From Paenibacillus sp. DCT19 (lineage in GTDB: Bacteria > Bacillota > Bacilli > Paenibacillales > Paenibacillaceae): a stretch of DNA of 64,000 nucleotides. Shown here piece after piece: positions 1 to 64,000 of the stretch. The notes under the pieces were generated by a model. It was not told the DNA's origin, ran no database searches, and saw only the letters and a program-made list of their open reading frames with translations. The stretch's first letter is position 1, and every line of letters begins with the position of its first letter. Position numbers and translations under genes: made by a program. Location: NCBI RefSeq assembly GCF_003268635.1, contig NZ_CP029639.1, positions 3,979,501 to 4,043,500 of the forward strand, in the 5' to 3' direction.

Positions 1-174
1 GGAGATGGTCAGCAAAAAAATAGGAAAATACGAATATAACCATTTAGAATACCAGTTCCGCTTCAGATGTATTTTCAAACGCATCCTCTCCTTCCACTTC
101 ATGCTCTAAATACAAAAGTAGATCGTGCTTCTAACCGTTGGTTTTGCTCCATTGTTGGGCTCTCTTCCTCTACA

Positions 175-1385
175 TCAGTTCAACGATTGCTGAGTCCTTG
201 CCTGCCTGCTAACGATTAACAAAATAAACGCACCCAGCGCTGCGCTGATTGTACAAGCCAAATACATGAGCGAAGGCCCACCTGAATCCAATAAATAACC
301 ATTTAACATATTACCTACAATGCCACCAAGTCCTGCAAATACCATATTAAATAAACTTTGACCCGTCGCTTGCATTTCCCGTCCTGTAACAGAAGCTACA
401 TATTCAACGGCTGCGATATAAAAGAATCCAAAAGATAGCCCATGTAAAACTTGAATGCCGATCATCACTTCGGGTGTTGGCCAGAGCCATTGAATACCCC
501 AACGAAGCATATACGCGCCTGCAGCCAAAAGCATGGTTCGTTCATGTCCCCATTTGCGGAGAATGAATGCAGCAACGAGCATCGAGGGCACATTCGTTAT
601 AGAGGCCAGAAGCAGTGCTGTACCTGTCATCGCTACAGAGCCGCCTGCCATTTGAAATGAAATGACAAAGAAAGAGTTAAACGCCGTTAACGTTTGATTC
701 ACTAGGAAACAGCCGATTAAAAATAGAAGGAATGTTCGGTTACGCAACAATCTTGCTAATCCTACGGAGAAGGTCACCGAGGAAGAAGAAATACTGGTTT
801 GCCGGGGAAGTGTGCTGGCCAGAACGGCACTTAGCACGTTAAATACTAGAAAAGGCAGCCACAACATATGAATGGAGAATTGGGACAGGTATATCCCGGC
901 TGCGAATCCTCCAAGCCCTGTACCTAAACTTCCAAACAATCGAATCATACCATAGGAAGTATTGGCTGCCTTAGCCGCAGTAACTGCATAAGAGTCAGCT
1001 ACAGGGATCTGAGTCACTTGAAATATAGTGCATAAAGTATAAATCAATATTAATATAATGTACACTTCTATATTGTAGAAATATGCTAACAACGCAGGAA
1101 CAAGCAAACTTAGCACTAATACAAAGCGAGTTTTTTTAAACTTATCTACCATAATCCCCATATCGGTTGGAGGATTATGGATATAAGTGTACCGAACGCC
1201 ATAATAAATCCGGTCTCTTTACTAGAGAAGCCTTGTGCAACCAAAATAGGATTAATATAGGGATTAAATATCCCTCCAGCAAGCCCCATAAACAAATACA
1301 GACCTTGCAGCTTCAATAATACATGCCTTGCTTCATTGGAATCGGCTTTTTCTCTTTCTCTGTATGCCTTCATATGTCTTCTCAT
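175..1385 (-). CDS. MFS transporter (frameshifted)
   Basis: Twelve-helix major facilitator permease of the MFS_1-like (HcaT-type) group; the substrate cannot be told from sequence. Two reading frames make one protein. The N-terminal frame ends just after the 'LQPIWG' loop at about 1149, and the second frame resumes at 'IMVDKFKKTR', the conserved cytoplasmic loop after helix 2. Adding one base to the CCCC run at 1156-1159 (GGGG on the coding strand) joins them as PIWG-IMVDKF and gives 403 residues. I chose the ATG at 1385 rather than 1397 because a GGAG lies six bases before it. It is the last gene of the ROK regulator-ROK kinase-MFS set, 111 bp after the kinase, so uptake or efflux of a sugar-like compound is plausible (inference). 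Confidence 0.8.
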
Positions 1386-1508
1386 CCGGATCTCCATCCT
1401 TTAATCCTGTAATGGCATCTCTTTCTATATAAGTTCAATATAAGAACGTTTATCTGACCACTCCAATGACAGAATAACATTCCGATCCATATTTAATAGA
1501 TTTATCTA

Positions 1509-2585
1509 TTATCGCTGTAGCACTTTCAAACGGATGGCTGCCAATGCACCATTGGCTCCTGCCGTATTGCCAAGTTCAGCGACAACGATTTTTGTAGCCA
1601 GCGCGGTATATCGACTCAGACGGCTGCGAACCTCATTTAGGTAATAATCAGGATTCGAAGCAGCTACACCGCCGCCAACAACAATAATAGATGGATTAAG
1701 TAATGCGACGATATTAGCCAGCCCTCTCGCCATATATTGTAATGGCACCTCCAGAATCTCAAGAGCGGCAACATCCCCCGCTTCAGCAGCTTTGAACACA
1801 TGCCGAGCCTCAATCTGGCTTACGTCTCCATCAGCAAGGCTATGAAGTAACGAGTGTGTATTGCCAGGTTCATCTGTAAAATAACGCCTTGCCTGTTGCG
1901 TAATGCCTGTGCCTGACGTATTCAGCTCGAACGCACCAAATGTATCTGAAGATGCCTTGTACTGACGATCAATTCCTTCGTCTCCAACAATAAAATGTCC
2001 AATTTCTCCTGCAGCTCCGTCTTGTCCACTATATAATTGTCCGTTAAGAATAAGCGCCGAACCGATTCCTGTCCCCACCGTCACCATTACACAATGTCGA
2101 TGCCCCTGAGCTGCACCGCGATCATATTCACCCATAGCTGCCATGTTCACATCGTTATCGAGATAAACCTCGCCTGCAAAATATGCAGCAATCACAGGTC
2201 TAATATCTTGCTCTGCCCACTGGAAAGCTGGCGCACTGCGCAGAATCCCTTCATCATCAAGGATAACGCCAGGAAAACCCATACCTATTCCAGATACCAG
2301 CTCTATTCCAATTCCACTATCCCTACAGAATTTTGCTACTTCATCAAATAACCACTTGAAAAACACGTCCGGTTGCTCTGTTGCACAGGTTGGAACCTTC
2401 CGCTCCCGTACCTCACTGCCCGGTTTCTCCGATGACAATAACATCAATGTTTTTGTACCACCAATATCAATCCCTATGATCCAACGATCTAATACATCCG
2501 TTTGATCAAGAGAACGTACTCTCTCTGTTGCGCGAAGAGGTTCTTCGAGTCTATTTCCTTGGGTATTACCGTCAAAAATATTCAT
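1509..2585 (-). CDS. ROK family sugar kinase-like protein
   Basis: A 358-residue ROK-fold protein, probably phosphorylating a sugar or amino sugar in the cytoplasm. The phosphate-binding motif DIGGTKT is at residues 40-46, the catalytic-base motif LDNDVN at 142-147 and the GEIGH substrate motif at 193-197. The cysteine-rich CxCGxxGC zinc motif typical of many ROK glucokinases is absent; residues after GEIGH read VGDEGID instead. A good SD (GAGAGGTAGGGA) precedes the ATG. It follows the ROK-type regulator by 36 bp and precedes the MFS gene, which fits a small sugar-use operon. The N-terminal 35 residues before the kinase fold are longer than usual. Substrate unknown. Confidence 0.82.
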   Translation of the reverse strand: MNIFDGNTQGNRLEEPLRATERVRSLDQTDVLDRWIIGIDIGGTKTLMLLSSEKPGSEVRERKVPTCATEQPDVFFKWLFDEVAKFCRDSGIGIELVSGIGMGFPGVILDDEGILRSAPAFQWAEQDIRPVIAAYFAGEVYLDNDVNMAAMGEYDRGAAQGHRHCVMVTVGTGIGSALILNGQLYSGQDGAAGEIGHFIVGDEGIDRQYKASSDTFGAFELNTSGTGITQQARRYFTDEPGNTHSLLHSLADGDVSQIEARHVFKAAEAGDVAALEILEVPLQYMARGLANIVALLNPSIIVVGGGVAASNPDYYLNEVRSRLSRYTALATKIVVAELGNTAGANGALAAIRLKVLQR

Positions 2586-2621
2586 TCTCTGTCCCTACCT
2601 CTCATCCTTGTTGTCAGTCAA

Positions 2622-3824: not shown

Positions 3825-3837
3825 CCCCTTCTCATAG

Positions 3838-6320: not shown

Positions 6321-6432
6321 GTATTCAGACCGAAGTCGTGCTACAGTCAGGCTAAGTTTGAGTACACTATAGACGTTGTTCAAATAATCATTGAGTTTGA
6401 GCAGTCCCTATAGTTCCAAGGAGGAGAATTTC

Positions 6433-11113: not shown

Positions 11114-12372
11114 ATGCAATCATCAAACGAGCTCAAAAAAACGATTGGCATGCCACAAGCTGTTGCACTCTATGTAAGTGCAGTCCTCGGCTCGGGTGTC
11201 TTAATCGTTCCTGGTCTTGCTGCCGAGCTGGCCGGGCCTGCATCACTCTTAGCCTGGGAGGTATGGTACTGCTCATCCTTCCACTCGCTTTGTCCATGGG
11301 TCTGCTCTCCGCTCGTTACCCGAACGCAGGTGGCGTATCCCATTTTGTTACACTTGCTTTTGGCCCAAGAGCAGGAGCAATGGTCGGCTGGTTCTTCCTC
11401 ATGTCAGTACCCATCGGCGCTCCAGTTGCTTCATTAACCGGTGCAGGATATATGACGGCGGCGCTTGGTTTGGGAGAAGGTGCTCGTATTGCCATTGCAG
11501 CGACCATGTTGACGGCAGGGCTACTCATCAACATTGTCGGGATGCAGCTCGCAGGCAAAGTTCAAATCGGCGTTGTCATCGCAATCATTGCGGTACTTAT
11601 CATGACCTTTATTCTTGCCGTGCCTCATCTGGAATCCAGTCATTTCGAGCCTTTTATGCCACATGGATGGATGAGTGTAGGACAAGCCGGAGCTATATTA
11701 TTCTGGTGCTTCATCGGTTGGGAGGCTGTTTCTCATCTCTCTGAGGAATTTACCGATCCCCGAAAAGCCGCAATCAAAGGTGTGACCATTGCCGCCGTTA
11801 TTGTTGGAATACTCTATTTCCTAACGGCTCTTGCCACAGTAGGTACCCAAAGTTATCTGCATGGCGGAGCAGATGTTTCCCTTGTTTGGATTATTAGCCA
11901 AGCGCTTGGCTCCTGGGGAAGTCTCATCGCAGGTCTAACAGGTGTATTTATCTGTACAGCGACAGTCATCGCCTATACAGGTGCTGCTTCTCGCGTAGCC
12001 TTTGCACTGGCAAGACAAGGCGCTGCACCACAATGGTTGACACGTCTATCCGGTCGTTTCCATACACCGATTGCAGCACTTGGTTTTCTCGCCATCTGCT
12101 TTATCCTTGTTCTCAGTATCTATAGCTCGGGACTTGTTTCTTTAACGACACTGATCCAGCTCCCGAACGCAACCTTCATCCTAACCTATCTAGGAGGTTG
12201 TGCAGCGGGGATCCGATTGCTCAAAGGTAATCGCACTGGAGTCATCATAAGCTGGATTTCCTTCATCGCTACAGCGATTATTTTTCCTTTTGCTGGCTGG
12301 GCGGTGTTATATCCGGTAGTGATCGTCATTCTCTATGGGCTGGTTAGTCGTAATCGAAAGGCAATCCAATAA
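11114..12372 (+). CDS. APC family amino acid permease, YjeH-like (frameshifted)
   Basis: Twelve-helix amino acid/polyamine/organocation transporter closest to YjeH, an exporter of methionine and branched-chain amino acids in E. coli. The start 'MPQAVALYVSAVLGSGVLIV' carries the G-S-G-V helix-1 break of the family; later landmarks are 'YPNAGGVSHFV' and 'FWCFIGWEAVSHLSEEF'. The frame breaks after 'LLAWG': the GGG at 11256-11258 needs a fourth G to read LAWGGMVLLILPL. With it the gene is 419 residues. The SD is weak (AGCAGG, distant), so the start is only fairly sure. Confidence 0.8.
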
Positions 12373-13098: not shown

Positions 13099-16000
13099 CT
13101 ACTCATCTCTTTCCTCCACAATAATCGTATACTCATTCGAAAGGGACTTCCCAACTCTGCGCTGACCTCTCCACTCATAAGAATAATTCGCGGTTAGGGT
13201 ACCTTGCTGCTTCGTTATATCTCCATCGGGTGTAATTTGAACAACATACGAAATATCCTTCTCCTCGCCTGGCTCCACATCACCTAAATGTAGATTTCGT
13301 GGTGTAGCGTATTCCGGGATATTTATTTGCAGCTCTCCATGAGCACGCCCAACCCATCTAGCTCCCGGTGGCAGTATATTCGTTAATTGTACACGCGCAG
13401 GCCAACTGCCGTGATTGGCAACTCGAACTTGGAAGACTACCTCTCCCCCTGCTTCTACAAGTGTCGGAGCCACCTCCACATAGACTGTGATTATAGGAAC
13501 CTTCAATTGAATCGTTGCATCATTTGATATCACGGTTCGCTGCACATTTCGCGAATCTGGCAATCGAAACGTGTAGAGCAGACGTGCCTTATTCACGATT
13601 TCAAGCTGCTGAGGATTCACTTGATCCATCTCCATAAGTTGTGCCTCGAACTGAATATGCATAGTAGAGCGGGCAGTCAGTGTTCCAAGGTTGAATCCAC
13701 GACTCGGATCAGCACCTGGCCTTTTGACTCCATTCCACCCAAGACTTCCTTCCACAAATCTCACTCCGTTGGGTAGCACATCCAGCATTGTTGCATCTAC
13801 GGCGTAACGGCTCTCGTTCGCAACCGTAATGTCATAACACACCGTGTCTTCCACCGTTGCGACCTCAGGATTTACCGTTTTGCGAATGGAGATACGAGGC
13901 TGAATGACCTCAAGTGTTGCTTCATTAGAGTAGATCGTTTCTCTCTGTCCTGCTGAGATGTAACTTAATCTAGCCTGGCTTGTAACCCCTTCTGTGTCCA
14001 ACGCAGCTGTCACTTGCACGCGGTATTGAATCTGTATTGAACGTTCTGGCAACACATCCCCAATTATAATTCCCGATTCTGGTGTCATCTGAGGAACGAA
14101 CATGTCATTCACAACAACACTTCCAGGAATAAACTGAACTCCTGAAGGCAACACAACCGTCACTTGGGCATCTGTCGCCGTTACAAAACCAGGATTACGT
14201 ACAATGATGTTATACGTTACAATGTCACCTGGAAAAGTCTGAACATGGTCTGCTTGCAGAGCAATCTCAAGACGAGGGGAGACAAGACTGACCTCCACCG
14301 TGTTCGAACGCTCCTCCCCCTGTACGTTCTCCCTTCTGATGTCACAAACTCATAACGAACAAGAGCCTGGTTCAATAACTTCAAACTTTCGGGTAAGCGG
14401 ATAATCATGACTTGAAAATGAAACCGCAAACTCGCTCCGGGCGCAATCTCACTCGGTGGCAACCCTTGTGCTGGGGATGATCCAGGCAACGGAATCCCAT
14501 CACGAAGTACGCTATTTGGCAACAGAGAGGTATCTGCGGATAATGAATCCGATACATAGACCGTAGCCGTGCAATTGCCTGAATTGATAATTTCAATGAG
14601 ATAGATCAAGGACTGACCCAATGTTGCCACTGTGGCACTGCACTGTTTACGAACTTCAAGTCTTGGTCCTACCCACGGTGTAACGACCGTATTAGAATAA
14701 GCTACCTGCTCTTGTTCAGTTGTACCTGAATTGAATCGAACCATGGATTGATTCTGCAGCCAATGTGACCACGAATCGGAAGTCGAACTCATATCACCAC
14801 AACCTCAACCCTAAATGTAATCGTAACCGAAGCACCTGCAGCAATGGATCCCAGTGTAATTCCGGTATTCGGATTCGCAGTTGGACGCGCTGCTCCATCC
14901 ACGGTTACGCTACCTGGTACAAACACACTTCCTGCTGGCACGGGATCGACCATCACGACGTTGTTAACAACTTCAATACCGCTGTTAGTTACAACAATGG
15001 TATACGTGATCACATCTCCTACCACTGCATCAATCGCACTCGTACTCTTGACAACTACGACATTCGGCGCTGACACAGGGATGACAAGAACATTAGACAC
15101 AACACTTCCCGTTAATTGGCGGCCATCTGGCGGGCTATACGTGAAGTCCGCAACAGCTTGGTTAATAAGTTGTTGATTCTGTGGTAACGAATCGACCGTT
15201 ACGCCAAGGGTAACCGTCACATTAACAGATGCACCTGGAGACAACGTACCTACGACAATACCTGTATTGGGATCAGCTCCAGGTTGTGGCACACCATCGA
15301 TCAGCACACTGTTCGGCAGCAATACTGTTCCATCTGGGATAGAGTCGGTCAATGTTAACTGGACAGGGAGATTTCCTGTATTGGTTAAGGAGAAAGAATA
15401 AATAATGGTATCACCAATTGTGGCATTTGAAGTACTGGCAGTTTTGGTCACAGCAACAATCGGTTGATAGATTGGCGTAACGACTGTATTGGAATATGAA
15501 GCACCAGAGAAAACTCCAGATGTGAAGCTTACATAAGACTGGCTACTCACCTGAGGTGGTGTAGGTAATGTATTAACTCGTACGGTATAAGACACCGCAG
15601 CAGAAGCACCTGGTGCGAGCGTGCCTATAGCTATGCCTAACGCAGGGTTTGCCGATGCCCTAACAACGCCGTCTACTAACACACTCCCTGTAATAAAAGT
15701 TACAGCTGGACTAATAGGGTCTGTTAATAACACATTGTTGACGGGGTCTATTCCGTTGTTCGTTATGACCATCTCATAAACAATGGTATCCCCCACTACA
15801 GCGTCAGTCGCAGGTGTTGTTTTGACAACCGTAACATCAGGAGCGGATACCTGAATTGCAAGTGTATTAGACGTCAAACTTCCTCCAAGCGTTCTACCGT
15901 CAGGTAACGTATAAGAAAAAGTTGCAGAAGCCTGGTTAACAATCGACTGACTGAGTGGCAATGTTACGATGACAACCGAAAACATTACTATCGTTGTTGT

Positions 16001-19000
16001 AGAAACGACGCCTAAAGGAATACCCGATGCAGGATCAGCGCCTGGCGCACTTGCTCCATTAATGATGACACTGTTTGGAACCAATTCGGTGCCAGCAGGG
16101 ATCGTATCGGTAAGCGTCACCGTTGCTCCATAGTTTCCAGCGTTGGAGATGGCGATGCTGTACACGACGGTATCCCCAACGGTAGCAAGAGCCTGATCTC
16201 CTGTTTTGACCGCAGTCAAAATAGGCTGATATACCGGCGTTGTTACTGTATTCGAGAAGGTGGTTGCAGAAAAAGCTCCCGAAGTGAAGCTGACAGTCGA
16301 TTGATTGTTGAGTACCGCGCTCGCTGGAAGAGCCGTCACTCTTATGCTAAACACAACGGTTACCGTTGCACCTGGTGCAATAGAACCCAGTGAAAGTCCA
16401 GTTGATGGATTAGCTCCGGGACGTAACACCCCATCTACAAAGACACTATTTGCCACCAGTGCCGTACTGGCCGGGATTGCATCTGTAAATATGACATTGC
16501 TAACACTCGCAATTCCGTTATTCCGCACAGCAATGCTATAGGTTACCGTATCGCCAACGGAGACCGCCGTAGACGTTGTTGATTTAACCACAGCGATATC
16601 TGGAGCAGACACAGGAATCGTGACAACATTGGACTGAATCGAGCCTGTAATGTTTCTTCCATCTGGAAGTGTAAAGGATAGTGCTACAGTAGCCTGATTA
16701 ACCAATTGCTGTGGCGTTGGCAGACTATCAATAACAACGGAGTACGTAATCGTTGTTGTTGCACCTGCAGCCACATTCCCGGCTGGAATACCTGTTGCAG
16801 GATTGGCTGCTGGTAATGGCTGACCATTCACAATAACGCTGTTGGGAACAAAAATTGTACCCGCAGGTAATGCTGCAGACAAGTTAATCTGAGCACCGTA
16901 ATTCCCCTGATTGCTCACCGTTACCGTATAACTGACTGTGTCTCCTACCGTTGCATTCTGTGTACTTGCGGTTAAAACGGCAGACAGAATGGGCTGGAAT
17001 ACAGGTGTCACTACTGTATTGGAGAAGGTCGTACCTGAGAATGCACCTGAGGTGAAACTTACTGTCGATCGATTGCTTAACTGTCCTCCTGGTGGAATTT
17101 CATTGACTCTAATATTGAAGGTAACTGTAGCACTCGCTCCTGGTGCCAGTGTGCCAAGCGCTACTCCTCCTGCCGGATTAGCCGCCGGTTGGACAACACC
17201 ATTGACTGTAACACTTCCTGCAACAAAGGTTGCACCGGCAGGAATGGGATCAGAAAACTGAATATTACTTACAGGTGCAATACCACTATTCGTGACGAGA
17301 ATAGAGTACGTTACTATATCGTTAACTGCTGCTGCTGTAGATACTGTACTTTTTACCACAGCCACATTCGGAGCAGACACAGGGAATGTAAGTGTGTTAG
17401 AAGTGGCTGAGCCGGTTAATGTCCGTCCATCGGGCGGAGTGAACGTAAATGATGCTGTAGCAAAATTGCTCAGCTGTTGAGGTGTTGGCAAGGAAGACAG
17501 TATAACAGCAAACGTTACAGTAGCTGTTACTCCCGCAGCTACATTTCCTACCGGAATTCCCGTTACAGGTGAAGCTCCGGGTTGCGGTACTCCAGCGACA
17601 ACGACGCTATTGGGTACAAAGGTAGTCACCGCAGGAATTGCGTCCGTTAACGTGACGATGGCTTCAAGATTTCCCGCGTTACTTACAGTTACTGTGTAGA
17701 CAATCGTATCCCCAACAGTTGCATTGACTGTGTTAGCCGTTTTCACAAGCGAGATCTGCGGTTGTATAACCGGGGTCACTGTTGTGTTGGACGATGATGA
17801 TCCCGAGAATGTACCTGATGTAAAGCTAACCGTAGACTGATTGCTAATCTGCGAAGGAACCGGCATAGTAATCCTCACCTCAAAAGTTACGGTAGCTTCC
17901 GCTCCTGGAGCTAGAGTACCGATTGGAATACCGGCTGACGGATTGGAGAGCGGGAATGAAACCCCGTTCACAATGACGCTTCCGGGTACAAACGGGGTAT
18001 TCGCTGGAAGTGGGTTGTTAAATACAACATTGTTGACAGCAACCGTTCCATTGTTACGAATGACTGACGTATAAATAACGGTATCGCCAGATACGGCATA
18101 GTCTAGATTATCGCTGTTTACAACCGTTACATTGGGAAGAGATACCGGAACAGTAACTGTGTTGGAGGAGGAAGTAGCTGTAATGACTCTTCCGCTTGGG
18201 AGAGTAAAGTTGTATACCGCTCCTGACTGGTTCGTTAATTGCCTTGAACTTGGCAGACTTGTTACGGTGGCAACAAAGGTTACCGTAGCGCTGCCCCGGC
18301 TGGGACTTGCCCTATATTAATTCCGGTATTCGGACTTACGCCTGGGGCTGGAGCACCGTTAATGATGACACTGTTGGTGTTAAATACTGCACCGGCGGGT
18401 ACAGGGTCGTTTATCGTCACTACTGCAGCGATATTACCCCTGTTATTAACTTGGATTGTATAGTTAAACGAATCTCCAACCGTCAGATTTGTTGTACTCG
18501 CGGATTTCACCAATTGTATGATCGGTTGAAATACGGGAGTCGTGACAACAACGGAAGAAGATACGCCATTAACACTTCCGGTTGTAAATGCAGCTCCCGC
18601 TCGGTTGCTAACAGAACCTGTGGTGGGTACCGCTGTAACTCTTGCCTGATACGTGATGGTTGCACTGTTAGAGCTACTGCTGGAGCTACCTAATGTGCCT
18701 ATCGAAATCCCTGCAATTGGACTTGCGGATCTCGCAGCAGTCCCGTTAATGGTTACACTGCCTGACACAAATTCTAGGCCTGTCGATGGAGAATCCGAAA
18801 CAATGACATTTTGTACAGCAGCGATGCCTGCATTCGTAACTACCACCGTATAGGTTAGAATCTCACCCACTGTAACATCAGGCGCATTCACGGTTTTGGT
18901 GATGGTGACATTGGGAGCAGAAGCCGCAATCTGAACTTGGTTAGACGCTGCGCTTCCCGATAGACTCCGACCACTTGGCAGTAGATACGTGTAACTGGCT

Positions 19001-21504
19001 GTTGCCTGATTCTGCAAGGTCGGTGGTGAAGGAATCGAGCTCAATGTTGTTTGAAAAACAACCGTCGAGATCCCTCCTGGCGCAAGAGTTCCCAATGAAA
19101 TTCCTGTTACTGGACTCGTTCCTGGTCGAGCCGAGCCATTCACGGTTACAGATCCAGCAATAAAGGTAAGACCTGCCGGAATCGTATCTGTTACATTCAC
19201 TTGAGCACTTAGATTCCCTGTATTTCTAACAATCAACGTATACCCAATCTGGTCACCCAACGTTGCATTTGTTGCGCTAGCCGACTTATTGATTGATATT
19301 ACAGGTTGAAATACAGGTGTACTTATTGAATTGGAGTTCGAAATCCCTGAGAACGCACCGGAACTGTACGACACGACTGCTTGGTTACCTAGTGATCCCG
19401 ACACAGGTAGGGACTGCACATTAACCTGAAACGTAACTGTAGCTGAAGTGCCGGCTGCCAGTGTGCCAAGAGATATGCCACTGCCTGGATTGGCAGCAGG
19501 TACATTCGTTCCTCTAACGACCACACTACCAGGTACAAATGCTGTGCCAGCGGGAAGAATGTCCGTAAGTACGACATTGTTGATCGCCTGAATGCCACCA
19601 TTCGATGTAACGATGGAATACGTAAATGTTTCGCCAACAGCAACGTCCGTAATCGTTGCTGATTTGACCACGACAACATTTGGTAACGTAACAGGAATAG
19701 ATAAAATGTTCGATGCCACTGAACCGTTAATCGTTCGTCCGTCAGGCGAATTAAAGGTATAGGTAGCCGTAGCTTGATCCACCAGTGTTGGGGGCGAAGG
19801 CAGATTCGTTACAAGCACCTGAAAGGTTACTGTCGTTACACTTCCTGCTGCAAGGCTTCCAAGATTCACACCTGTCGCCGGGTTGGCTCCTGCCACCACA
19901 TTGCCATTCACACGAAAGCTGCCTGCAACATAAGAGCTGCCTGCAGGAATGTTATCCGTGAGGGTCACGTTTGCCGCTACATTGCCTCCATTGTTAACTT
20001 GAAGAGTGTAGGTCACTTGATCCCCAACCGTAGCATTGGTAGTACTCGCTGATTTCACAATAGACAGGTTAGGAGAATATACCGGTAATACAGAGCTGTT
20101 GGACGGAATTACACCCGTGATGACCGAACCACCTGCTACACTCTGAAAAGTAAAGGCCGCACTAGCAGAATTGACTAGTTGCAAAATATTAGCATCGGGT
20201 CCGATTAATGCGCGATATGTGACGACAATACTACTAGATAGATTCAATGAGCCCAGAGGTATACCCGTTGTCACATCCAGCGTTGGCCTAGATACTCCTG
20301 CCACAGTGACACTGCCTGGAATAAAGGTGAGACCCGGTGGCAATGTATCCGAAAGCACCACACTAGCGGCACTAGCTGTACCTCCGTTACTAATCGTTAC
20401 TGTATACAGGATACTGTCCCCTGCAACAGCTCCGGTGGCGACGGAAGCCTTAGCAACTGTAATTCGGGGTGCATTGATATCAACCTGTATGGCATTGGCA
20501 TTAACGATGTAGGCATCTCCCGAAGTGGTAAGCGTCAGTACCGCTGAGGACTGGTTATTAATCAGCCTAGCCGAGACATCTACATTCGTAATATCCCAGC
20601 CTTGACGTCCACCAACGATGTTGGAACCAGGAGCTCCATTCACTTGGTTACGTGTGCCAAACGTACCTGTTGTGTTCAGCGCTCCGGTATCCCCGTTAAT
20701 TTGAGACGCAAAAAAATTCGCTGCCAGATTGTTCGGGCCAGATAAAGCAACCGAAGTCGCTGATGTCGGGCCAAAGAGCGCCTGGTCTCCGGTTCGGTTA
20801 GCATCTCCCTCCTGTGCACTGAATAAAGCCCTGCCCCCAAGCGTACCGGATAGTGGCGTAGCAAACCCAGTCAGTGTGGTGACTACTGGCGCCGAAGTGG
20901 ATTGTACAAGCACACCACCAGCCCGAAGAGACATGTTTCGAAACGGAAGATTTCCGTTCTGGTAAATAACCCCTAGTGTCCAACCCGCGTGATTCGCTGT
21001 AGCATCGTTTGTAATGACAATCGTGCCTACGACAGCCCCCGTGATGTATGTACCTGCCCCACCATTTGCGACTAATGTGGTTACATTCGCTGAACGTACG
21101 TACCCCGCAGCATTATTTCCTAGATCGAATTGATTGTACGTAAGTGGATCGGGAGTAATGCTAAAAGTCCCCGCCGGAGTAGTAAAGGTTACAGGGTTAT
21201 TAATGGCTGCACTGAGATTGACCGTGCCATTAATATAACTTCCTCCCCAGATTAATTCTGCGTACAAGATTGTACTGCCAGCAGGAAGATTCAGAATGGC
21301 TGCGGAACTGTTGCTCTGGTATGCACTTGTAGTCCCAAGAGGATATGTTCCGTATTGCACACCCGCATTCGTTGTCGTAAAACCTCCGATACTGTCTTGC
21401 GTTCCAGGTACCCCTGCCGTATCTGAACGACTTAGACCAAGGGTATTGCCCGTAAAAGTGATTGCTCCTGTAGCGTTAACGGTTGAGCGAACGACAAGAG
21501 GAAT
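13099..21504 (-). CDS. Giant DUF11-repeat protein (three frameshifts)
   Basis: One locus of about 2,800 residues split by three single-base shifts at 18294-18297 (CCCC), about 14790, and 14316-14320 (CCCCC). Residues ~1-340 form a unique head ('GAITFTGNTLGLSRSDTAGV') of the kind that opens Bacillus-group conserved-repeat proteins. Then come 19 tandem Ig-like DUF11 repeats of ~115-130 residues, each with a 'VGDxVxYTVxVxNxG' strand and 'PAGxxFVPGSVxVNG'. Repeats 2-15 alternate between two sub-types, one opening APNVxVVK and the other (Y/F)QPIxxxxK; the last four are more divergent and more charged. No signal peptide, sortase motif or transmembrane helix is visible. I place the start at an ATT (21504), eight bases after GGAGG within AAGGGGAGGTGA; GTG 21573 is the alternative. 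A spore-surface or extracellular role is inference. Confidence 0.8.
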
Positions 21505-21737
21505 GGAGTTCACCTCCCCTTCATCCAAAATCATGTTCCTTGATATGGAGCCTTGTAAAAGTCTATGACGCACCCTTCAGAAATTTGTTTATTCTATGGT
21601 GAAAATTTCTTTCTTTTGGTGTATACTTGTACATTTTATTTCAAATTTAATGATTGCCTTTTGTCCAATGTGATTTATAATCATCATATACGAGAGAAGA
21701 AGTTTCGTATCATTATGATGCAGTCAGCGGTGATATA

Positions 21738-38418: not shown

Positions 38419-38585
38419 GTTATATCGCTCCTCTCTGCATCCGGTTATCACTTCACCTGCTTAAGTTTTCGCCCTCGAAAGCTGCATTCCTGCTGGGTTT
38501 TTGCAATTTCCTAGCGATCGACCGCAATCGACGAAGGTTGTTAAACTTCGCATGAAAGCTCTCTTGTAATCCGCCTCATAGCTAC

Positions 38586-41130: not shown

Positions 41131-43109
41131 CTATTCTTCGTACTCTGTAAAGTCAACGTTCTCTACAATCCAGCGTTTACGTGGGTCTACTTTGTCACCC
41201 ATAAGTGTAGATACCCGACGCTCTGCTTTTGCCGCATCGACAATCTCAACTTTGAGCAATGCACGCGACTCCGGGTTCATTGTCGTTTCCCACAGTTGAT
41301 CAGGGTTCATCTCGCCCAATCCTTTGTAACGCTGAAGTTCGACGTTTTTACCTAATTCTTTCATGTAATTGGCCAACTGTTCATCCGTCCATGCATAACG
41401 AACGGTTGACATTTTGCCTGATTTGCTAGTGATTTTGTATAGCGGCGGCTGAGCAATGTACACTTTGCCCTCATCAATCAAAGGTTTCATATAGCGATAA
41501 AAGAACGTAAGCAACAATACCTGAATATGCGCACCGTCTGTATCGGCATCTGTCATAATGATGATTTTGGAATAATTGCTGTCTTCAACCGCAAACTCGG
41601 TACCAATACCTGCTCCAATGGCAGCAGTAATGGCACGGTACTCTTCATTTTTCAAAATGTCAGCAAGCTTGGCTTTCTCTGGGTTGAGCGGCTTTCCTTT
41701 TAGCGGAAGAATAGCTTGAATTTTGGAATCCCGCCCTTGTTTCGCTGAACCTCCCGCTGAATCTCCCTCTACAATAAACAGCTCATTCCGGGAAAAATCC
41801 TTCGATTGTGCAGGAGTTAACTTACCGTTTAGATTGGAGCTTTCGCTACGCTTTTTGCCTGAACGCATCTCGTCACGTGCTTTACGCGCCGCTTCTCTTG
41901 CACGAGATGCCTGAACTGCCTTGCGAATAAGCGTCTGCGCAACCTGTGGGTTCTCTTCCAAAAAGCGCTGCATGTTCTCTGCCACGACAGAATCCACTAC
42001 ACTTCGAGCAGATGCGCTTCCGAGTTGGTCTTTCGTTTGACCGACGAATTCAACCTCAGACATTTTGACACTAATAACAGACATCATACCTTCACGAAGA
42101 TCGTTACCTTCTAGGTTTTTGTCCTTTTCCTTAATCATGCTCGTCCGTCTTGCATATTCATTCATCACACGGGTGTAGGCTGTCTTGAATCCGGTCTCAT
42201 GTGTTCCCCCACCCTAGTAGGTATGGAGTTAACAAATGACGCTAGCGTTTCGGTATAACCAGCGTTGTACTGAATCGCCACTTCGACTTCGATATCATCC
42301 TTCTCCGCAACAAAATGAATGACATCATGTAGCACATCTTTATTTTCGTTCAAGTATGCGACAAATTGACTTGCTCCACCTTCATACATGTACTCATCTT
42401 GATTTCCTGAGCGCTCATCCTTGAGCACAATCCGTAGACCAGAGTTTAAGAAAGCAATCTCTTGCAAACGCTCCGCGAGTGTATCGTAATTTAACTGAAT
42501 ACCATTTTGAAAAACACGAATATCCGGCTTGAACGTAACCTTCGTTCCGGTGCGATTAGTGTTACCCAGCACTTCAAGACCTGTAATAGGCTCTCCGACA
42601 TGCTCCACACCTTTTTTATCTTGCCAATATTCGAATCGTTGACGATGAATCTTACCATCACGGAAAATTTCAACTTCTAGCCACTCAGACAAAGCGTTCG
42701 TCACCGAAGCACCAACGCCGTGAAGTCCGCCAGATTTCTTGTATCCTGATCCACCGAATTTTCCGCCTGCGTGCAAAATCGTAAACACGACCTGGGGAGT
42801 AGGAATCCCTGTTTTATGTATACCTGTCGGAATTCCCCTTCCGTTATCCTGAACCGTAATGGAACCGTCCTTATGCAGGGTGATATCGATTTTGGAGCAG
42901 AATTTGGCGAGATGTTCGTCGACAGCATTGTCAACAATTTCCCATACCAAATGATGCAGACCTGAAGAACTGGTGCTGCCGATGTACATCCCGGGCCGTT
43001 TCCGAACCGCAACCAGTCCTTCAAGTACTTGAATGTCGTCCGCGTCGTAGCCTGAAGACCCTTGTCCCCCGCCTGTCGAACCTGCCGACATATCGATTTG
43101 CTCGACCAT
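41131..43109 (-). CDS. parE: DNA topoisomerase IV subunit B (frameshifted)
   Basis: ATPase subunit of topoisomerase IV, 659 residues once repaired. The GHKL ATPase is seen in 'VWEIVDNAVDEHLAKF', 'VQDNGRGIPTGIHK' and 'GGKFGGSGYKKSGGLHGVGA'; the TOPRIM domain in 'FIVEGDSAGGSAKQGRDSKI' and 'TDADTDGAHIQVLLL'. The frame breaks in the highly conserved 'NSIPTR-GGTHETGFK' strand: the CCCCC at 42206-42210 needs a sixth C. As parE is essential, an assembly error is far likelier than inactivation. SD GGGGGAGC before the ATG. Upstream of parC in the same operon. Confidence 0.9.
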
Positions 43110-49385: not shown

Positions 49386-50407
49386 TTATGAACGGGATAT
49401 ACTCCGATTTTTATCACGGAAGAGCTCATTATGGGAGGAAACATACGCCATCCTAGCTGCCTCTGGATTCAAGTATAGTTTCGCACGATTCACCGCAACG
49501 ATTGCATCATTAAAAGCCCCAGCTATGAGCCGTACTTTGCTCTCATTGGTGGCACAATCTCCAGCTGCAAATACACCCGGTAGGTTGGTCTCAGCGTGTT
49601 GACTCATCAAAACCATTCCGTCACTCATTTTTAATCCACAACTGGCAAGATCACTTAGATTACTTGTATATCCATGGCTAATCACTACTTCATCCACATC
49701 CAATAAGATATGCTCTCGGTTCAACGTATGCGTAATGCCAACCTGGTTAATGCGTTCACCATTGGTTTGTAGCTGTGTAATCTGATACGGAGTTCTTACA
49801 TCCGCTATCTCGTACATCTCGCTGACATTCCGTTCCATTGCACGAAATTCAGATTGACGATGAACCACGTTAACACGTTGAGCAACTTTAGCAAGTTCAA
49901 TGGCCCAGTCTACAGCACTGTTGCCTCCACCTGAAACAAGCACACGTTTACCTGCAAAGTATTCCGGGTTTTGCACCGTATAGTGAAGATTTACATGCTC
50001 ATTATCATTTGATTCCTGGAGCTCTAGCCTCTGAATTTCAGCGACGCCACGACCTACTGCGATGATCATCGTTCGGGTATAGTGGATCTCCCCTCAGTGG
50101 TATACATCGCCAATATTCCGTTATCCAGACGAGAGAAGCGTTCCATCTGACGATTGAATATAACCGTTGGGTTAAATGTGTTGGCCTGCTGTACAAGCCA
50201 CTCTATCAACTTCGAACATTTCATAGGTGGTAACCCACCTACATCCCAAATCGTCTTCTCGGCATAGGTGTGCAGAAATCCGCCAAGTTGATCTTTACCT
50301 TCAATAATTTTGACCTTCATCTCACGCATGCCCGCATAAAAGGCCGCATACATTCCGGCAGGGCCGCCTCCAATGATGGTTACATCATAAATATCTTCTT
50401 CACGCAT
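49386..50407 (-). CDS. Ferredoxin/flavodoxin-NADP reductase, YumC type (frameshifted)
   Basis: A thioredoxin-reductase-like FAD enzyme of about 340 residues that passes electrons between NADPH and ferredoxin or flavodoxin. The FAD site is 'DVTIIGGGPAGMYAAFYAGM', the NADPH site 'RVLVSGGGNSAVDWAIELA' and the second FAD motif 'LPGVFAAGDCA'. No CxxC redox pair is present, which separates it from thioredoxin reductase. The frame breaks after 'YTTEG': the CCCC at 50090-50093 needs one more C, giving 'TEGEIHYTRTMIIAVG'. It follows the siderophore-binding lipoprotein by 61 bp behind the same Fur box, so it may supply electrons for flavodoxin or siderophore iron release (inference). Confidence 0.85.
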
Positions 50408-50468
50408 TGTGAACACATCCTGTATTCATTAGTTATGAAATGCGAGACTCGATAGCGGAGTCCATTTT

Positions 50469-53512: not shown

Positions 53513-55363
53513 CTACAAAAATTTGTACTGAGCCTCAATAAGCCCATTATACACACCTTGCTGTTTAATCAACTGATCATGGTTTCCTTCTTCTTTAATT
53601 TCACCATGATCCAGTACAATAATATTATCCGCATTCCGAATCGTCGAGAGACGGTGAGCGACCATAAAGGATGTTCTACCCTGCAACAGAACCTTCAATG
53701 CCTCTTGGATTTTCAGTTCAGTCTCCGTATCAATACTTGCTGTCGCTTCATCTAGAATTAAGATACGCGGATTAGCTAGCAATGCACGAGCGAAGGATAA
53801 CAGTTGGCGTTGACCCATAGATAAGACATTGCCGCGCTCTTCAACTTCGGTATCATACCCACCTGGAAGCTTCATAATGAATTCATGAGCGTTTACTGCT
53901 TTTGCAGCGTCCTCCACTTCTTCATTGGTTGCATCCAACCGCCCGAATCGAATATTATCACGGATCGTACCAGAGAAAATAAACGTATCCTGCAGTACGA
54001 TACTGATCTGACTTCGTAAGCTCTCTACGGTTACATCCCGAACGTCCCGACCATCAATCGTTAAACGCCCGTCAGATATGTCATAGAAACGGCTGATTAA
54101 GTTAATGATTGTACTTTTACCGGAGCCTGTGTGACCCACTAGTGCAATCGATTGACCAGCGGCTGCCTTAAAGCTGATTCCCTTCAGCGCCTGTCTGCCT
54201 TTCTCGTACTCGAATACAACATTGTCAAATACGATGTCCCCTTTGATTGCAGGAAGTGGCTTCGCACCCGGTTTGTCTGCAATGCTTGGCTTCTCATCCA
54301 TGAATTCAAAGATCCGTTCAGAAGACGCCATTGCAACCAGTAATTGATTGTACATTTGACCTAGACGATTGATTGGGTCCCAGAAGTTACCAACGTAGTT
54401 GGCGAATGCAACAAGCAAGCCGACAGTCAACTGATTATCCTGGATCAGGTAAGCACCAAACCAGAACAGAATTAATGTACCAAAGCCACCCGTAATCTCA
54501 ATGAGCGGTCCGAAGCCCTGGTTCATCGCCGAAGCTCTATCCCAAGACTTTTTGCTGGACATATTCATGTTGTCAAAGTATTTCATGTTCTCTTTTTCCT
54601 GCGTATACGCTTGAGTCACTCGAATCCCTTGAATGGATTCATTCAAGTGGGAGTTAATACGGGAGTTCTTCATACGTACATCCTGCCATGCACGGCGGAT
54701 TAACACACGCAGTTTGGTCGAGATAATAAACATAATTGGAACCGTGATAATGACAGCAAGCCCCAGCTTCCAGTTAATTAGCAACAAAATGACGATGATA
54801 CCAAGCAACTGTACACAGTCGATCATGACGTTAACTGCACCATTCGTAAACAAGTCCTGCAAGGAGTTAATGTCATTGGTGACACGTACAAGCACTGAGC
54901 CTGCTGGTCTTTTGTCAAAAAAGTTAAAGGACAATTTCTGGATATGCTTGAACAGATCTGACCGAAGATCGTAAATCACTCGCTGTCCAATAATATTGGT
55001 CAATTTGATCCGATACGTATTGGCACCCCACTGAATTAAATACAGTGCAAGAACCGAGCCAGCGATCAAATAAAGCAATGTCATACTGGGCAATCCCGTC
55101 TGTGGTGCTATTGCACGGTCAATCGCCAAACTGATTAGAAACGGTACAGACAATTTGGTTATTGTCCCCAGAATCATCATTAATATAACGAGTGGCAAGA
55201 GCTGCCTTGCATAAGGTTTCATATATGCAAACAATCGGCCAAACTCTTTCCAGTTAAACGGTTTCTCAATAATTTCGTCATCTTGATATACGAATCTTTC
55301 ATTTAACTTTTGATTAGAAGTCCCCTTGACCTCGCCCCTATCTGCTACCGTATCGGCACTCAT
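53513..55363 (-). CDS. ABC exporter half-transporter, catalytic-site subunit (BmrD/YheH-like)
   Basis: A 616-residue type IV ABC half-exporter: six helices (~residues 60-350) then an ATPase with Walker A 'GHTGSGKST', signature LSMGQ and canonical Walker B 'ILILDEATASID' with the catalytic Glu. The N-terminal ~50 residues are an extra hydrophilic arm, as in BmrD/LmrD. The frame is open up to 55603, but the true start is the ATG at 55363, four nucleotides past the TGA of the upstream partner and behind AGGTGA. It forms a heterodimer with that partner; drugs and lipids are the usual substrates. Confidence 0.9.
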   Translation of the reverse strand: MSADTVADRGEVKGTSNQKLNERFVYQDDEIIEKPFNWKEFGRLFAYMKPYARQLLPLVILMMILGTITKLSVPFLISLAIDRAIAPQTGLPSMTLLYLIAGSVLALYLIQWGANTYRIKLTNIIGQRVIYDLRSDLFKHIQKLSFNFFDKRPAGSVLVRVTNDINSLQDLFTNGAVNVMIDCVQLLGIIVILLLINWKLGLAVIITVPIMFIISTKLRVLIRRAWQDVRMKNSRINSHLNESIQGIRVTQAYTQEKENMKYFDNMNMSSKKSWDRASAMNQGFGPLIEITGGFGTLILFWFGAYLIQDNQLTVGLLVAFANYVGNFWDPINRLGQMYNQLLVAMASSERIFEFMDEKPSIADKPGAKPLPAIKGDIVFDNVVFEYEKGRQALKGISFKAAAGQSIALVGHTGSGKSTIINLISRFYDISDGRLTIDGRDVRDVTVESLRSQISIVLQDTFIFSGTIRDNIRFGRLDATNEEVEDAAKAVNAHEFIMKLPGGYDTEVEERGNVLSMGQRQLLSFARALLANPRILILDEATASIDTETELKIQEALKVLLQGRTSFMVAHRLSTIRNADNIIVLDHGEIKEEGNHDQLIKQQGVYNGLIEAQYKFL

Positions 55364-55367
55364 GAGT

Positions 55368-57131
55368 TCACCTGCTCCCAGCCTCCCGCTTACCGCGGGC
55401 AATGTAATCTGCATATTGAATTTTATAAACATCCTGATATGGTCCAGGTACTTCAATAAGGTCTTTGTGTTTCCCGCGCTGCACGACACGCCCTTCATCG
55501 AGCACCAGAATCTCATCTGCATGTCGTAGAGAAGATATCCGGTGGGCAATAATAAATGTCGTTCTACCACGCATGACCTCTTGGAAGCCGGATTGAATCT
55601 CATGCTCGGTTTCCATATCTACCGCACTGGTTGCATCATCAAGCACTAGAATTTTCGGGTTTTTCAACAAAGCTCTTGCGATCGCAATCCGCTGTTTCTG
55701 ACCACCTGAAAGACCCATTCCGCGCTCACCGACAACCGTGTCATACCCTTCCGGGAACTCCATAATGAAATCATGTGCTTTGGCCAGCTTCGCTGCCCGA
55801 ATAATTTCATCCATCGTTACATTTTTCAAACCGTAGGAAATATTGTTACGAATGCTTGAGGAGAACAGGAACGTCTCCTGAAAAACTGAAGCGATCTGAC
55901 TACGTAAACTACGAATACCGATGTCTTTAATATTTTTTCCATCCAGCTTAATCGTGCCCGAGTTCACGTTGTACGCACGCATCAGGAGCTGAATAATCGT
56001 CGATTTTCCTGACCCTGTTCCGCCAAGGAAACCGATGACTGTTCCAGGAGGTGCATCAAAGTTAATATCTGTCACAGCTGCCATCTTGTTGCCATACGCA
56101 AAGGTTACTGACTCGAAGGTTACATGTCCTTTAACATGATCTGCCTCCATAATAAGTGGATCTTCTGTTTCTTGTACATCTACTGGCGTATTCAATAGTT
56201 CTAGTACGCGTTCACCCGAAGCTTTTGATTGAGTATAGTTGTTGATATGGAAACCGAGGTTCCACATTGGTCCAATTATGTACCAGATCAAACTGAAAAA
56301 GGCAACGAGTTCACCAAGTGTTAGCGTTTGCTGAATAACCATTCTGCCACCGATGACCAAGAGCAAGACCACACTTACAGAAGCAAGGATCTCCATGATC
56401 GGAAAATAATGACTCCATAAGGTTGCTGCATGAATCTGATTCGTTTTGTAACGTTCGTTGCGTGTAGAGAACTTCTCCACTTCATAAGGCTCACGAGCAA
56501 AAGATTTAACCGTACGCACGCCTGTGATATTCTCCTGTACGGCTGTCGTGAGTGAACTCAGCGCGAGTCGCATTTCCTGGAACGCAGGGTGAATTCGGGA
56601 TTCGAATCTTAGCGCAACGAAGGCAAGTAGAGGAATACAAATGAGTGTATACAGGGTAAGCTGCCAACTCATCGTCATCATCATAATTGCGCCGAATACG
56701 ACCATTAATACCATGTTGAGAATCTGGGCGAAGCCAAACCCGATAAAGTTCCGGATCGCTTCCAAATCTCCCGTGAGGCGGGACATCAGATCTCCCGTTT
56801 TGGCCGTGTCATAATAACGGAAGGATAAAAATTGAAGCTTTTCATAACAAGCATTACGAAGCCGGTATGCCAAAAAGTTACCCAGTCGGCCTCCAAAGAA
56901 ACCGTGTAAAAATTGCATGCCCGCTTTTAAAATAACAACACCTAACACTGTCAAAGCAAGTATGGGAACGTCTTCAAAATTTCGCGGTATAATTACGTTA
57001 TCAATCAAAATCCTTAGCAGGTTCGGATATACAAGCCCGAGTGCAGTCGCTATGGCGAGGAACAAGATTGATACAAATAAATACGATCGCTTTTCCCAAA
57101 AAAAGGTTTGCAGTTGCCTGAGAACATCCAT
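55368..57131 (-). CDS. ABC exporter half-transporter, degenerate-site subunit (BmrC/YheI-like)
   Basis: A 587-residue half-exporter with six helices and an ATPase carrying Walker A 'GGTGSGKST', signature LSGGQ and Walker B 'ILVLDDATSAVD'. The catalytic Glu is replaced by Asp, so one of the two ATP sites of the heterodimer should be weak, as known for BmrC/BmrD and LmrCD. It is the first gene of the pair; 4 nt separate its stop from the partner's start. A 268-bp leader lies upstream. Confidence 0.9.
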   Translation of the reverse strand: MDVLRQLQTFFWEKRSYLFVSILFLAIATALGLVYPNLLRILIDNVIIPRNFEDVPILALTVLGVVILKAGMQFLHGFFGGRLGNFLAYRLRNACYEKLQFLSFRYYDTAKTGDLMSRLTGDLEAIRNFIGFGFAQILNMVLMVVFGAIMMMTMSWQLTLYTLICIPLLAFVALRFESRIHPAFQEMRLALSSLTTAVQENITGVRTVKSFAREPYEVEKFSTRNERYKTNQIHAATLWSHYFPIMEILASVSVVLLLVIGGRMVIQQTLTLGELVAFFSLIWYIIGPMWNLGFHINNYTQSKASGERVLELLNTPVDVQETEDPLIMEADHVKGHVTFESVTFAYGNKMAAVTDINFDAPPGTVIGFLGGTGSGKSTIIQLLMRAYNVNSGTIKLDGKNIKDIGIRSLRSQIASVFQETFLFSSSIRNNISYGLKNVTMDEIIRAAKLAKAHDFIMEFPEGYDTVVGERGMGLSGGQKQRIAIARALLKNPKILVLDDATSAVDMETEHEIQSGFQEVMRGRTTFIIAHRISSLRHADEILVLDEGRVVQRGKHKDLIEVPGPYQDVYKIQYADYIARGKREAGSR

Positions 57132-57320
57132 GTTTCTCCTCCTCTTGTCTAGTTCAAAATAGTATGAACATTTATGAAGTTTATCACCGTCCCCCTTCGC
57201 GGCAAAGCGAATAACAGACCATATTCAGGCTACTTTCTCCTTAATGCGGCATTAACAGGGGTAAACAACCACCTATCAATCAAATGTTTGAATATTCTCT
57301 TCATTTCAGGTTGTTCGTAC

Positions 57321-61846: not shown

Positions 61847-61869
61847 CGTTACTCATCCTCTTCTAGTCA

Positions 61870-62565: not shown

Positions 62566-62656
62566 GAAGAGCTACCTCCCACAGAATCACCACACATGGT
62601 GGAGCCTTACTTCCAAACTTATTTCGAGTACTTTACGAGGACACAAAAGCTTGCAA

Positions 62657-62697
62657 AAAAAACGTCCTGATGCGGGAAAGATCCCGCATCAAGACGG
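62657..62697 (-). terminator. Terminator of the beta-rich repeat protein gene
   Basis: GTC.TGATGCGGGA pairs with TCCCGCATCA.GAC around an AAGA loop, and a T8 run follows on the minus strand. Confidence 0.88.
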
Positions 62698-62725
62698 TCA
62701 TTCTTTGATCCTCAAAAAGAAACGA

Positions 62726-64000
62726 TTACTGTTTTTGGATCTCCATCACGATGTTGTTCAGGAGATACAATACAATATTATCATTATCTCTGAGAGATTG
62801 CACGCTTAAAGTGTTGTCACCCTGGTGAACATATACTCCTGTACCAAGTGCAAAACGATAGTTAGTGTCCGTAGTTGTCTCACGTTTCACCAGAATTTGG
62901 TTCCCTACGCCATCGTAAGACCAGAACTGTTTGCTCAGAATTGTCATCACTCTGAAACGAGTGGAGTTATCCGTATCCTTCGTCATTTCGACCCGATCTC
63001 CAACAGTAAGACTTCCCAATGAAGTTAAAGTAGAACCGGATTTAATCACTTTGACGGGACCGCTAACCGGAACTGTCTCGGATTGACCGTTGAATAGTTT
63101 CAGTGTAACTGAAGTTGCATCAACTGAAGTGACCTCAGCGAGTGTACGTTTCACAACCTGAACAGCTTTAGGTGTAATCCCTTCAAACGTAACGTTGATC
63201 AAGTTTCCTACTGTCAATTGTGAAGCAGTTAACGTCTGACCACTTTCTCCTGTCAGCGTTGCTTGATCGAAGTAAAATTGGCTTGTCAGCAAATCCGATT
63301 TTACACGAACACGACCATTGGTTTCAATACCCGTAATTTCGAATTGAGCAACGGTGTTCAGAGCGACCTTTTGGATATAATCCTGATTCGCGCCCAACGT
63401 GACCGTAACGTTGTCGCCAATTTTCAAATCTGAGAGACTTGCACCAGACTTATTATATATTTCCACTGTAGGAGCGATTGTATAAGGAACGGTTATTGTC
63501 TGATTGCCAGACAACAAACTAATTTTCCGGTTGGAAGTATCAATATTGCTAATGGTACCCTCATACTTGAAAATAACCTTAACGGAAAGCGCACGAGTAC
63601 CTACATATGTTAGATCCAGCTTGCGTCCTTCGTTCAGCAGAGACTCCAGACCTGCCATAGTTGGCTTCGTTGAATTATAATCCAACTTTGTTTTTTCATC
63701 CAATGTAAATACAAACGGTTTTTTGTTGCTATCCAGCACAGTAAGTACTTTTGTTTTAGCGTTATAGGATACTACAGATGCACCATTCATCGGTTCCATT
63801 TGGCGGCCAATGACCTGGATCCGTGTAACACGATCTTCAGCGTTCAATGTTAACTCTACCTGATCTCCATTTGTTGCATCTGTGATGAGATCATTTAATG
63901 AAGCATCCTGTATTCCATTAATAATAACTTCCGGTTTCTCAACCAGCAGCTTAGCTTCAAGGGAGCCACCTTCACGCTTGAATGTCAATGTAGACTGATT
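62726..64000 (-). CDS. C-terminal part of a secreted beta-rich repeat protein (5' end outside window)
   Basis: The frame runs off the window edge without a start; 424 codons are visible. It consists of ~60-75-residue beta modules of the form 'GDxVxLxLxxxxxVxxI' ('TNGDQVELTLNAEDRVTRIQ', 'KIGDNVTVTLGANQDYIQKV', 'TVGDRVEMTKDTDNSTRFRV'), rich in Thr, Val and Ser, with no cysteine. In Paenibacillus such C-terminal parts often follow S-layer-homology domains, but the N-terminus is not visible, so the surface assignment is inference. A strong terminator follows. Confidence 0.7.
   Translation of the reverse strand, partial: NQSTLTFKREGGSLEAKLLVEKPEVIINGIQDASLNDLITDATNGDQVELTLNAEDRVTRIQVIGRQMEPMNGASVVSYNAKTKVLTVLDSNKKPFVFTLDEKTKLDYNSTKPTMAGLESLLNEGRKLDLTYVGTRALSVKVIFKYEGTISNIDTSNRKISLLSGNQTITVPYTIAPTVEIYNKSGASLSDLKIGDNVTVTLGANQDYIQKVALNTVAQFEITGIETNGRVRVKSDLLTSQFYFDQATLTGESGQTLTASQLTVGNLINVTFEGITPKAVQVVKRTLAEVTSVDATSVTLKLFNGQSETVPVSGPVKVIKSGSTLTSLGSLTVGDRVEMTKDTDNSTRFRVMTILSKQFWSYDGVGNQILVKRETTTDTNYRFALGTGVYVHQGDNTLSVQSLRDNDNIVLYLLNNIVMEIQKQ

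What the first reader, a model, noticed from the sequence alone, without database searches (positions are those of the whole stretch)
1..64000. Twelve frameshifts in nine genes, mostly G/C homopolymer contractions
Breaks occur at 1156 (MFS), 11256 (APC), 14316, 14790 and 18294 (DUF11), 31685 (RluA), 35272 and 37370 (CoA-disulfide reductase), 38336 (MarR), 42206 (parE), 45517 (GDSL) and 50090 (FNR). In ten cases the site is a G/C run of 3-7. Nine runs look one base short and one (38336) one base long. Adding or removing one base restores conserved sequence and makes every gene length divisible by three (RluA fits a one-base loss or an extra TA). This is the mark of homopolymer indels in the assembly. 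Any protein set predicted from it will contain false pseudogenes.
Basis: partly seen in the sequence, partly recalled or inferred. Interest (0 to 1): 0.75.

Follow-up and report, generated by a model that had tools for sequence, protein, structure and literature searches.

The report
Assembly-made frameshifts in a Paenibacillus
Twelve reading-frame breaks in this stretch of a Paenibacillus genome sit at or beside short runs of G or C where close relatives have one or two more bases and an unbroken frame, and they are most likely mistakes of the assembly rather than dead genes.

Summary
The window lies in a one-contig 6.67 Mb Paenibacillus genome; a near relative is P. tundrae (89-96% DNA identity). 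Eleven of the 12 listed breaks are real one- or two-base losses in genes that relatives read in one frame. The twelfth (14790) is an ATGA stop/start overlap between two DUF11 genes, present in 10 of 10 relatives that align across it. One break was missed (55377, ABC transporter), so the window holds 12 breaks in 11 genes. The site read as one base long (38336, MarR) is two bases shorter than in both closest relatives, so all 12 are losses.

Over 417 kb, G/C runs of 3, 4, 5 and 6 in ORFs are one base short in 1/1706, 4/306, 5/40 and 6/9 cases; A/T runs barely; the reverse direction is rare (30 vs 3). Genes are not spared relative to other DNA (P=0.41), though they are for A/T-run indels (P=5e-6). 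Near-identical proteins from other contigs are full length over four of the breaks. No reads were seen and the platform is unknown. This is an ordinary, well-known kind of artefact.

The parts
175..1397 (-). MFS transporter gene, broken near 1160
   Evidence: One ORF in P. tundrae, two frames here; two 403-aa proteins, 100% and 99.7% identical over the long piece, span the site; Pfam MFS_1_like
11114..12372 (+). APC-type amino-acid permease gene, broken near 11259
   Evidence: Frame change against P. tundrae and three other aligned loci, of which L115 and L129 are the same genome; Pfam AA_permease_2
13099..14792 (-). Second DUF11 gene, broken near 14321
   Evidence: Single ORF in P. tundrae and one frame in 9 of 9 informative loci; a 564-aa protein, 99.4% and 98.5% identical to the two frames, spans the site
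14789..14792 (-). ATGA stop/start overlap joining the two DUF11 genes; not a frameshift
   Evidence: Same ATGA in 10 of 10 relatives that align there; L139 did not align and was left out
14789..21534 (-). First DUF11 gene (6747-base ORF in P. tundrae), broken near 18298
   Evidence: one frame across the site in 19 of 19 informative loci, several from the same genome
31358..32115 (+). RluA-type pseudouridine synthase gene, broken near 31668
   Evidence: Both pieces match PseudoU_synth_2; one frame in 79 of 79 informative loci
34874..37436 (-). CoA-disulfide reductase type gene (Pyr_redox, rhodanese, TusA, DrsE domains), broken near 37375 and 35275
   Evidence: an 847-aa protein, 99.7% and 98.5% identical to the two long frames, spans both sites; its first 15 residues were too short to align on their own
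37974..38451 (-). MarR-family regulator gene, broken near 38339 by a net loss of two bases
   Evidence: one frame in 83 of 83 informative loci
41131..43109 (-). parE, topoisomerase IV subunit B gene, broken near 42214
   Evidence: Pieces match HATPase_c, DNA_gyraseB, Toprim, DNA_gyraseB_C; one frame in 85 of 85 informative loci; one other DNA_gyraseB_C match in the genome
45134..46002 (-). GDSL lipase/esterase gene, broken near 45521
   Evidence: one frame in 51 of 52 informative loci
49386..50416 (-). FAD/NAD(P) oxidoreductase (FNR-like) gene, broken near 50091
   Evidence: one frame in 18 of 18 informative loci
55360..57205 (-).
   Evidence: 22 of 26 informative loci read to the end in one frame, the other 4 alignments stop short of the end

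Best explanation
The twelve breaks are most likely base-calling or consensus errors of the assembly that shorten short G/C runs, not mutations in the living strain. As a G/C run grows from 3 to 6 bases, the share that is one base shorter here than in P. tundrae rises from under 0.1% to 6 of 9 in genes (shown). Each shortening inside a gene shifts the frame and leaves one protein split between two frames (shown). That the reads or the consensus step made the shortenings is inferred, since no reads were available. An under-polished long-read assembly is the likely source, and the platform is not identified.
For: Length and base dependence: P. tundrae G/C runs of 3, 4, 5 and 6 in accepted ORFs are one base shorter here in 1/1706, 4/306, 5/40 and 6/9 cases, and outside accepted ORFs in 4/538, 4/131, 6/37 and 4/6; A/T runs of 4 or more in 3/1441 and 13/763. 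Direction: for G/C runs of 4 or more, own shorter 30 vs P. tundrae shorter 3 (P=1.4e-6); for A/T runs 16 vs 13 (P=0.71). Blind to coding: length-matched odds ratio ORFs vs rest 0.63, P=0.41 for G/C losses, against 0.10, P=5e-6 for A/T-run indels. Place: 37 of 45 breaks lie within 3 bases of a G/C run of 3 or more vs 11.9% background, P=5e-27; 11 of 11 in the window. Repeat in own genome 1-400,000 vs G016: own shorter 2/148, 5/37, 2/4 at G/C runs of 4, 5, 6; reverse 0/151, 0/34, 0/2. Near-identical full-length proteins from other contigs span four breaks in three genes. Third-position mismatches dominate around the window breaks, except the short stretch beside 37375 (0,2,1). Of the genome's two matches to the gyrase B C-terminal family, one is the broken parE and the other lies near base 6,215, by its place gyrB (recalled).
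Against: No reads were seen. 8 of 45 breaks in the wider region are not near a G/C run, so some may be natural or another error type. Density falls along the region (11, 7, 9, 4, 5, 3, 3, 3 per 58 kb bin, the last bin half aligned), which a uniform error process would not give unless coverage varies. Listed completeness is 99.98%, which looks good for so broken an assembly. At G/C runs of 3 the second region shows no bias (own shorter by one in 3 of 672, reverse 4 of 674). The coding-blind test is small: 15 losses in ORFs, 14 outside, odds ratio below 1. The error profiles I read about do not point to a G/C-only loss: one benchmark found residual errors biased to A/T runs in its best polished pipelines, though one polisher left more in G and C runs (PMC11232133, passages).
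Confidence: 0.96

Rival explanations
1. The breaks are true mutations: the strain is a mutator or a decaying lineage that loses bases from G/C runs.
For: Losses do follow run length, as slippage would.
Against: Genes are not detectably spared relative to other DNA although A/T-run indels are strongly depleted in genes in the same alignments; slippage should also hit A/T runs and give gains, and neither is seen at a comparable rate; third-position bias around most breaks shows protein selection; the only parE is hit, and topoisomerase IV is essential in Bacillus subtilis (recalled); near-identical proteins elsewhere are intact.
Confidence: 0.03
2. Some breaks are functional frame changes (programmed frameshifting, or phase variation by run-length change).
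For: The DUF11 pair keeps a change of frame at 14790 in 10 of 10 relatives that align there.
Against: That change is an ordinary ATGA stop/start overlap. At the real breaks relatives stay in one frame: 79/79, 83/83, 85/85, 51/52 and 18/18 informative loci for RluA, MarR, parE, GDSL and FNR. Runs are short, and housekeeping genes are hit.
Confidence: 0.01
3. The relative is wrong and the window right: P. tundrae and others have extra bases.
For: At 11761 in the APC permease it is P. tundrae that appears to break.
Against: Relatives of many named species read through the window's sites in one frame, and a second relative gives the same direction in another region.
Confidence: 0.005

Closest known systems
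Homopolymer-length errors of long-read bacterial assemblies that split genes
   Same: Indels at homopolymers that cause frameshifts at gene calling, described in PMC9262707 (passages); homopolymer indels as the hardest errors to correct in PMC11232133 (passages); gene-fragmenting errors are the subject of PMC12007338 (abstract start); homopolymer-length errors as the commonest residue in PMC8812927 (abstract start).
   Different: Here G/C runs from about 4 bases upward are affected, while A/T runs of 4 to 7 in ORFs are nearly clean (2 of 1438). I did not find a platform with exactly this profile.
Natural bacterial pseudogenes
   Same: A frame break splits a gene into two ORFs.
   Different: No clear sign of relaxed selection, no detectable protection of genes against the breaks, near-identical copies elsewhere intact for the three genes searched.
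ATGA stop/start overlap of adjacent genes
   Same: The 14790 site has it, as do 10 of 10 relatives that align there.

Membership tests
Homopolymer-length assembly error | Breaks lie at homopolymers | tested here: met
   37 of 45, and 11 of 11 in the window, within 3 bases of a G/C run of 3 or more; background 11.9%
Homopolymer-length assembly error | Rate rises with run length | tested here: met
   1/1706, 4/306, 5/40, 6/9 for runs 3 to 6 in ORFs; repeated for runs 4 to 6
Homopolymer-length assembly error | Blind to whether DNA codes for protein | tested here: met
   ORFs vs rest P=0.41 for G/C losses (one gain outside ORFs left out of the table); A/T-run indels P=5e-6 as control
Homopolymer-length assembly error | Near-identical genomes have intact genes | tested here: met
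   Tested for 3 of 11 genes (4 breaks): MFS, second DUF11, CoA-disulfide reductase; the other 8 were not searched
Homopolymer-length assembly error | Accurate reads disagree with the assembly | not testable with these tools
   No reads are held
Natural pseudogene | Relaxed protein selection around the break | tested here: not met
   Third-position mismatches dominate, e.g. parE 1,0,21 and 2,1,49 by codon position. Beside 37375 (0,2,1) and 38339 (1,1,3) counts are too small, and ORFs had been chosen for at least half third-position mismatches overall
Programmed frameshift | Frame change kept in relatives | tested here: not met
   One frame in nearly all informative loci. The tblastn test was insensitive for APC and the first DUF11 gene: it did not flag the window's own break there, so those two rest on DNA alignment
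Stop/start overlap (14790) | ATGA at the same place in relatives | tested here: met
   10 of 10 that align there; an eleventh, distant sequence left out

The most novel reading that the evidence does not exclude
The strain is a true mutator that deletes bases from G/C runs only, so recently that selection has not yet removed lethal-looking breaks such as the one in parE.
Probability: 0.02. Interest if true: 0.8.

Novelty: not a real feature. Interest (0 to 1): 0.12.

Why it matters
Anyone using this genome's protein set would count false gene losses, including an apparently dead parE. With 45 breaks in 417 kb compared, the whole 6.67 Mb record would hold several hundred if the rate were even (extrapolated; density varies). 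At least one broken piece is already held as a protein in the searched collection. Comparing run-length loss inside and outside genes, with A/T runs as the control, can tell assembly error from pseudogenes without reads.

Tried and rejected
Considered and rejected: natural mutator or decay, programmed frameshifting, phase variation, and error in the relative (see rivals). A platform fingerprint from the literature was sought and not found: searches; passages of two papers seen. One of those passages reports residual errors biased to A/T runs, which is against a simple match.

Rows set aside: one search lists 15 P. tundrae ORFs in the window with an out-of-frame part; four of them differ only in the first 41 bases (near 6410/6433, 10095, 53233, 61098), and the ABC ORF also differs near its start (57191). 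These were treated as differing starts, not breaks, without a separate test. Blocks at or below 84% identity or under 1 kb were dropped before counting; 42 blocks with 417,136 bases remained, 61,142 bases of them in blocks wholly inside the window and one more block running across its end. ORFs with fewer than 8 mismatches or under half of them at third positions were dropped. Interior breaks were counted only from base 60 to 20 bases before the ORF end, which excludes 55377. Of the 9 reverse candidates, one is 55377 itself and six lie in the first 140 bases of the ORF. Run comparisons needed three identical flanking bases on each side. The tables tested were typed in; one G/C gain outside ORFs and runs beyond 6 (G/C) or 8 (A/T) were left out of the length-matched test. 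One search used blocks of 72-93% identity (72 blocks, 255,263 bases) and did not separate genes from other DNA. 'Informative loci' include several loci from one genome. The junction count leaves out L139.
Full report
What the window is. The window is bases 3,979,501-4,043,500 of a one-contig genome of 6,667,063 bases. By one protein (ParC), the closest named records listed are P. tundrae DS1314 and Paenibacillus sp. Root52; records very near the window may be left out of that list. It aligns to nearly the whole window at 89-96% identity.

The observation. I aligned 464 kb of the genome, window included, to P. tundrae and kept 42 blocks, 417,136 bases. Genes were P. tundrae ORFs with at least half of their mismatches at third positions: 339 ORFs, 345,591 bases. 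Alignments of each site with further relatives agree where those could be aligned; for MFS only P. tundrae aligned. Across informative loci the relatives stay in one frame: RluA 79/79, MarR 83/83, parE 85/85, FNR 18/18, GDSL 51/52, second DUF11 gene 9/9, first DUF11 gene 19/19, CoA-disulfide reductase 5/5 and 6/6, APC 3/3, MFS 1/1 (several loci can come from one genome). The same kind of tblastn test, run on the window itself as a control, did not flag the break for APC and the first DUF11 gene, so for those two the DNA alignments carry the case.

Three corrections. First, 14790 is not a break. The first DUF11 gene ends and the second begins in an ATGA overlap, and 10 of 10 relatives that align across it have the same ATGA; an eleventh, distant sequence did not align there and was left out. 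Second, the MarR site is a net loss of two bases against both closest relatives, which gives the frame of a one-base gain; with it, all window breaks are losses. Third, a break at 55377 displaces the last few codons of an ABC-transporter gene and seems to open a false upstream extension of the next ORF. The corrected tally is 12 breaks in 11 genes.

Why it is the assembly. Over the wider region 45 interior breaks were counted: 42 one-base losses, two two-base losses, one gain; the reverse search gave 9, of which one is 55377 and six are near ORF starts. 37 of 45 lie within 3 bases of a G/C run of 3 or more against 11.9% of background (P=5e-27), and 6 of 45 near A/T runs against 26%. Eight of 45 are not near a G/C run.

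Run lengths give the clearest picture. Where flanks match, P. tundrae G/C runs of 3, 4, 5 and 6 in accepted ORFs are one base shorter here in 1/1706, 4/306, 5/40 and 6/9 cases; outside accepted ORFs in 4/538, 4/131, 6/37 and 4/6. A/T runs of 4 or more are one base shorter in 3/1441 and 13/763. For G/C runs of 4 or more the own genome is the shorter one 30 times and P. tundrae 3 times (P=1.4e-6); for A/T runs the split is 16 to 13. Selection should spare genes. It does so for A/T-run indels (odds ratio 0.10, P=5e-6) and not detectably for G/C losses (0.63, P=0.41; 15 losses in ORFs, 14 outside). Losses that selection has not seen are unlikely to be in the cell.

Repeat. Bases 1-400,000 of the genome against G016 (72 blocks, 255,263 bases) show the same: own shorter in 2/148, 5/37 and 2/4 at G/C runs of 4, 5 and 6, and the reverse 0/151, 0/34 and 0/2. 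At runs of 3 there is no bias (3/672 and 4/674), and at A/T runs of 4 or more one-base losses are 4 of 527 and 5 of 525.

Near-identical copies. Searches with three window pieces found full-length proteins on other contigs: a 564-aa DUF11 protein (99.4% and 98.5% identical to the two frames), an 847-aa CoA-disulfide reductase (99.7% and 98.5%), and two 403-aa MFS proteins (100% and 99.7% over the long piece, 92.9% over the short one, where the alignment runs past the break). They cover four breaks. One MFS protein and the DUF11 protein share a contig length of 132,817, and the other MFS protein and the reductase share 2,413,229, so two near-identical genomes are likely. The window's own 689-aa reductase piece is held too, from a 6,667,063-base contig.

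Selection and essentiality. Mismatches by codon position keep a third-position excess around the window breaks, for example 1,0,21 and 2,1,49 in parE; beside 37375 (0,2,1) and 38339 (1,1,3) the counts are too small to say much, and the ORFs had been chosen for such an excess overall. The genome has two matches to the gyrase B C-terminal family, one near base 6,215 and the window's parE, so this parE appears to have no intact spare. That topoisomerase IV is essential in Bacillus subtilis is recalled.

What is inferred. That reads or consensus made the losses is inference. Long-read assemblies are known for homopolymer indels that cause frameshifts at gene calling (PMC9262707, passages). The G/C-only profile was not matched to a platform: PMC11232133 (passages) reports residual errors biased to A/T runs in its best pipelines and more G/C-run errors for one polisher. 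Density falls along the region, 11, 7, 9, 4, 5, 3, 3, 3 per 58 kb bin, the last bin half aligned, which may reflect coverage. I give no list of base changes for the genes.

Noticed in passing
14789-14792: ATGA stop/start overlap between two DUF11-repeat genes, kept in 10 of 10 relatives that align across it.
   Followed up: yes
11761: Against P. tundrae the APC permease shows a second frame change here, and at this one it is P. tundrae that appears to depart from the other relatives.
   Followed up: partly
window and the following 400 kb of the genome: Breaks are denser in and near the window (11 in the first 58 kb) than further on (3 per 58 kb bin).
   Followed up: partly
18280-21573: In read-through, the best match to this DUF11 piece holds one in-frame stop in three of 11 relatives (G011, G013, G022); in G011 it lies mid-gene, at residue 942 of the P. 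tundrae protein.
   Followed up: partly
57400-61074: A 1224-aa protein with two dynamin-family matches, open in one frame.
   Followed up: no
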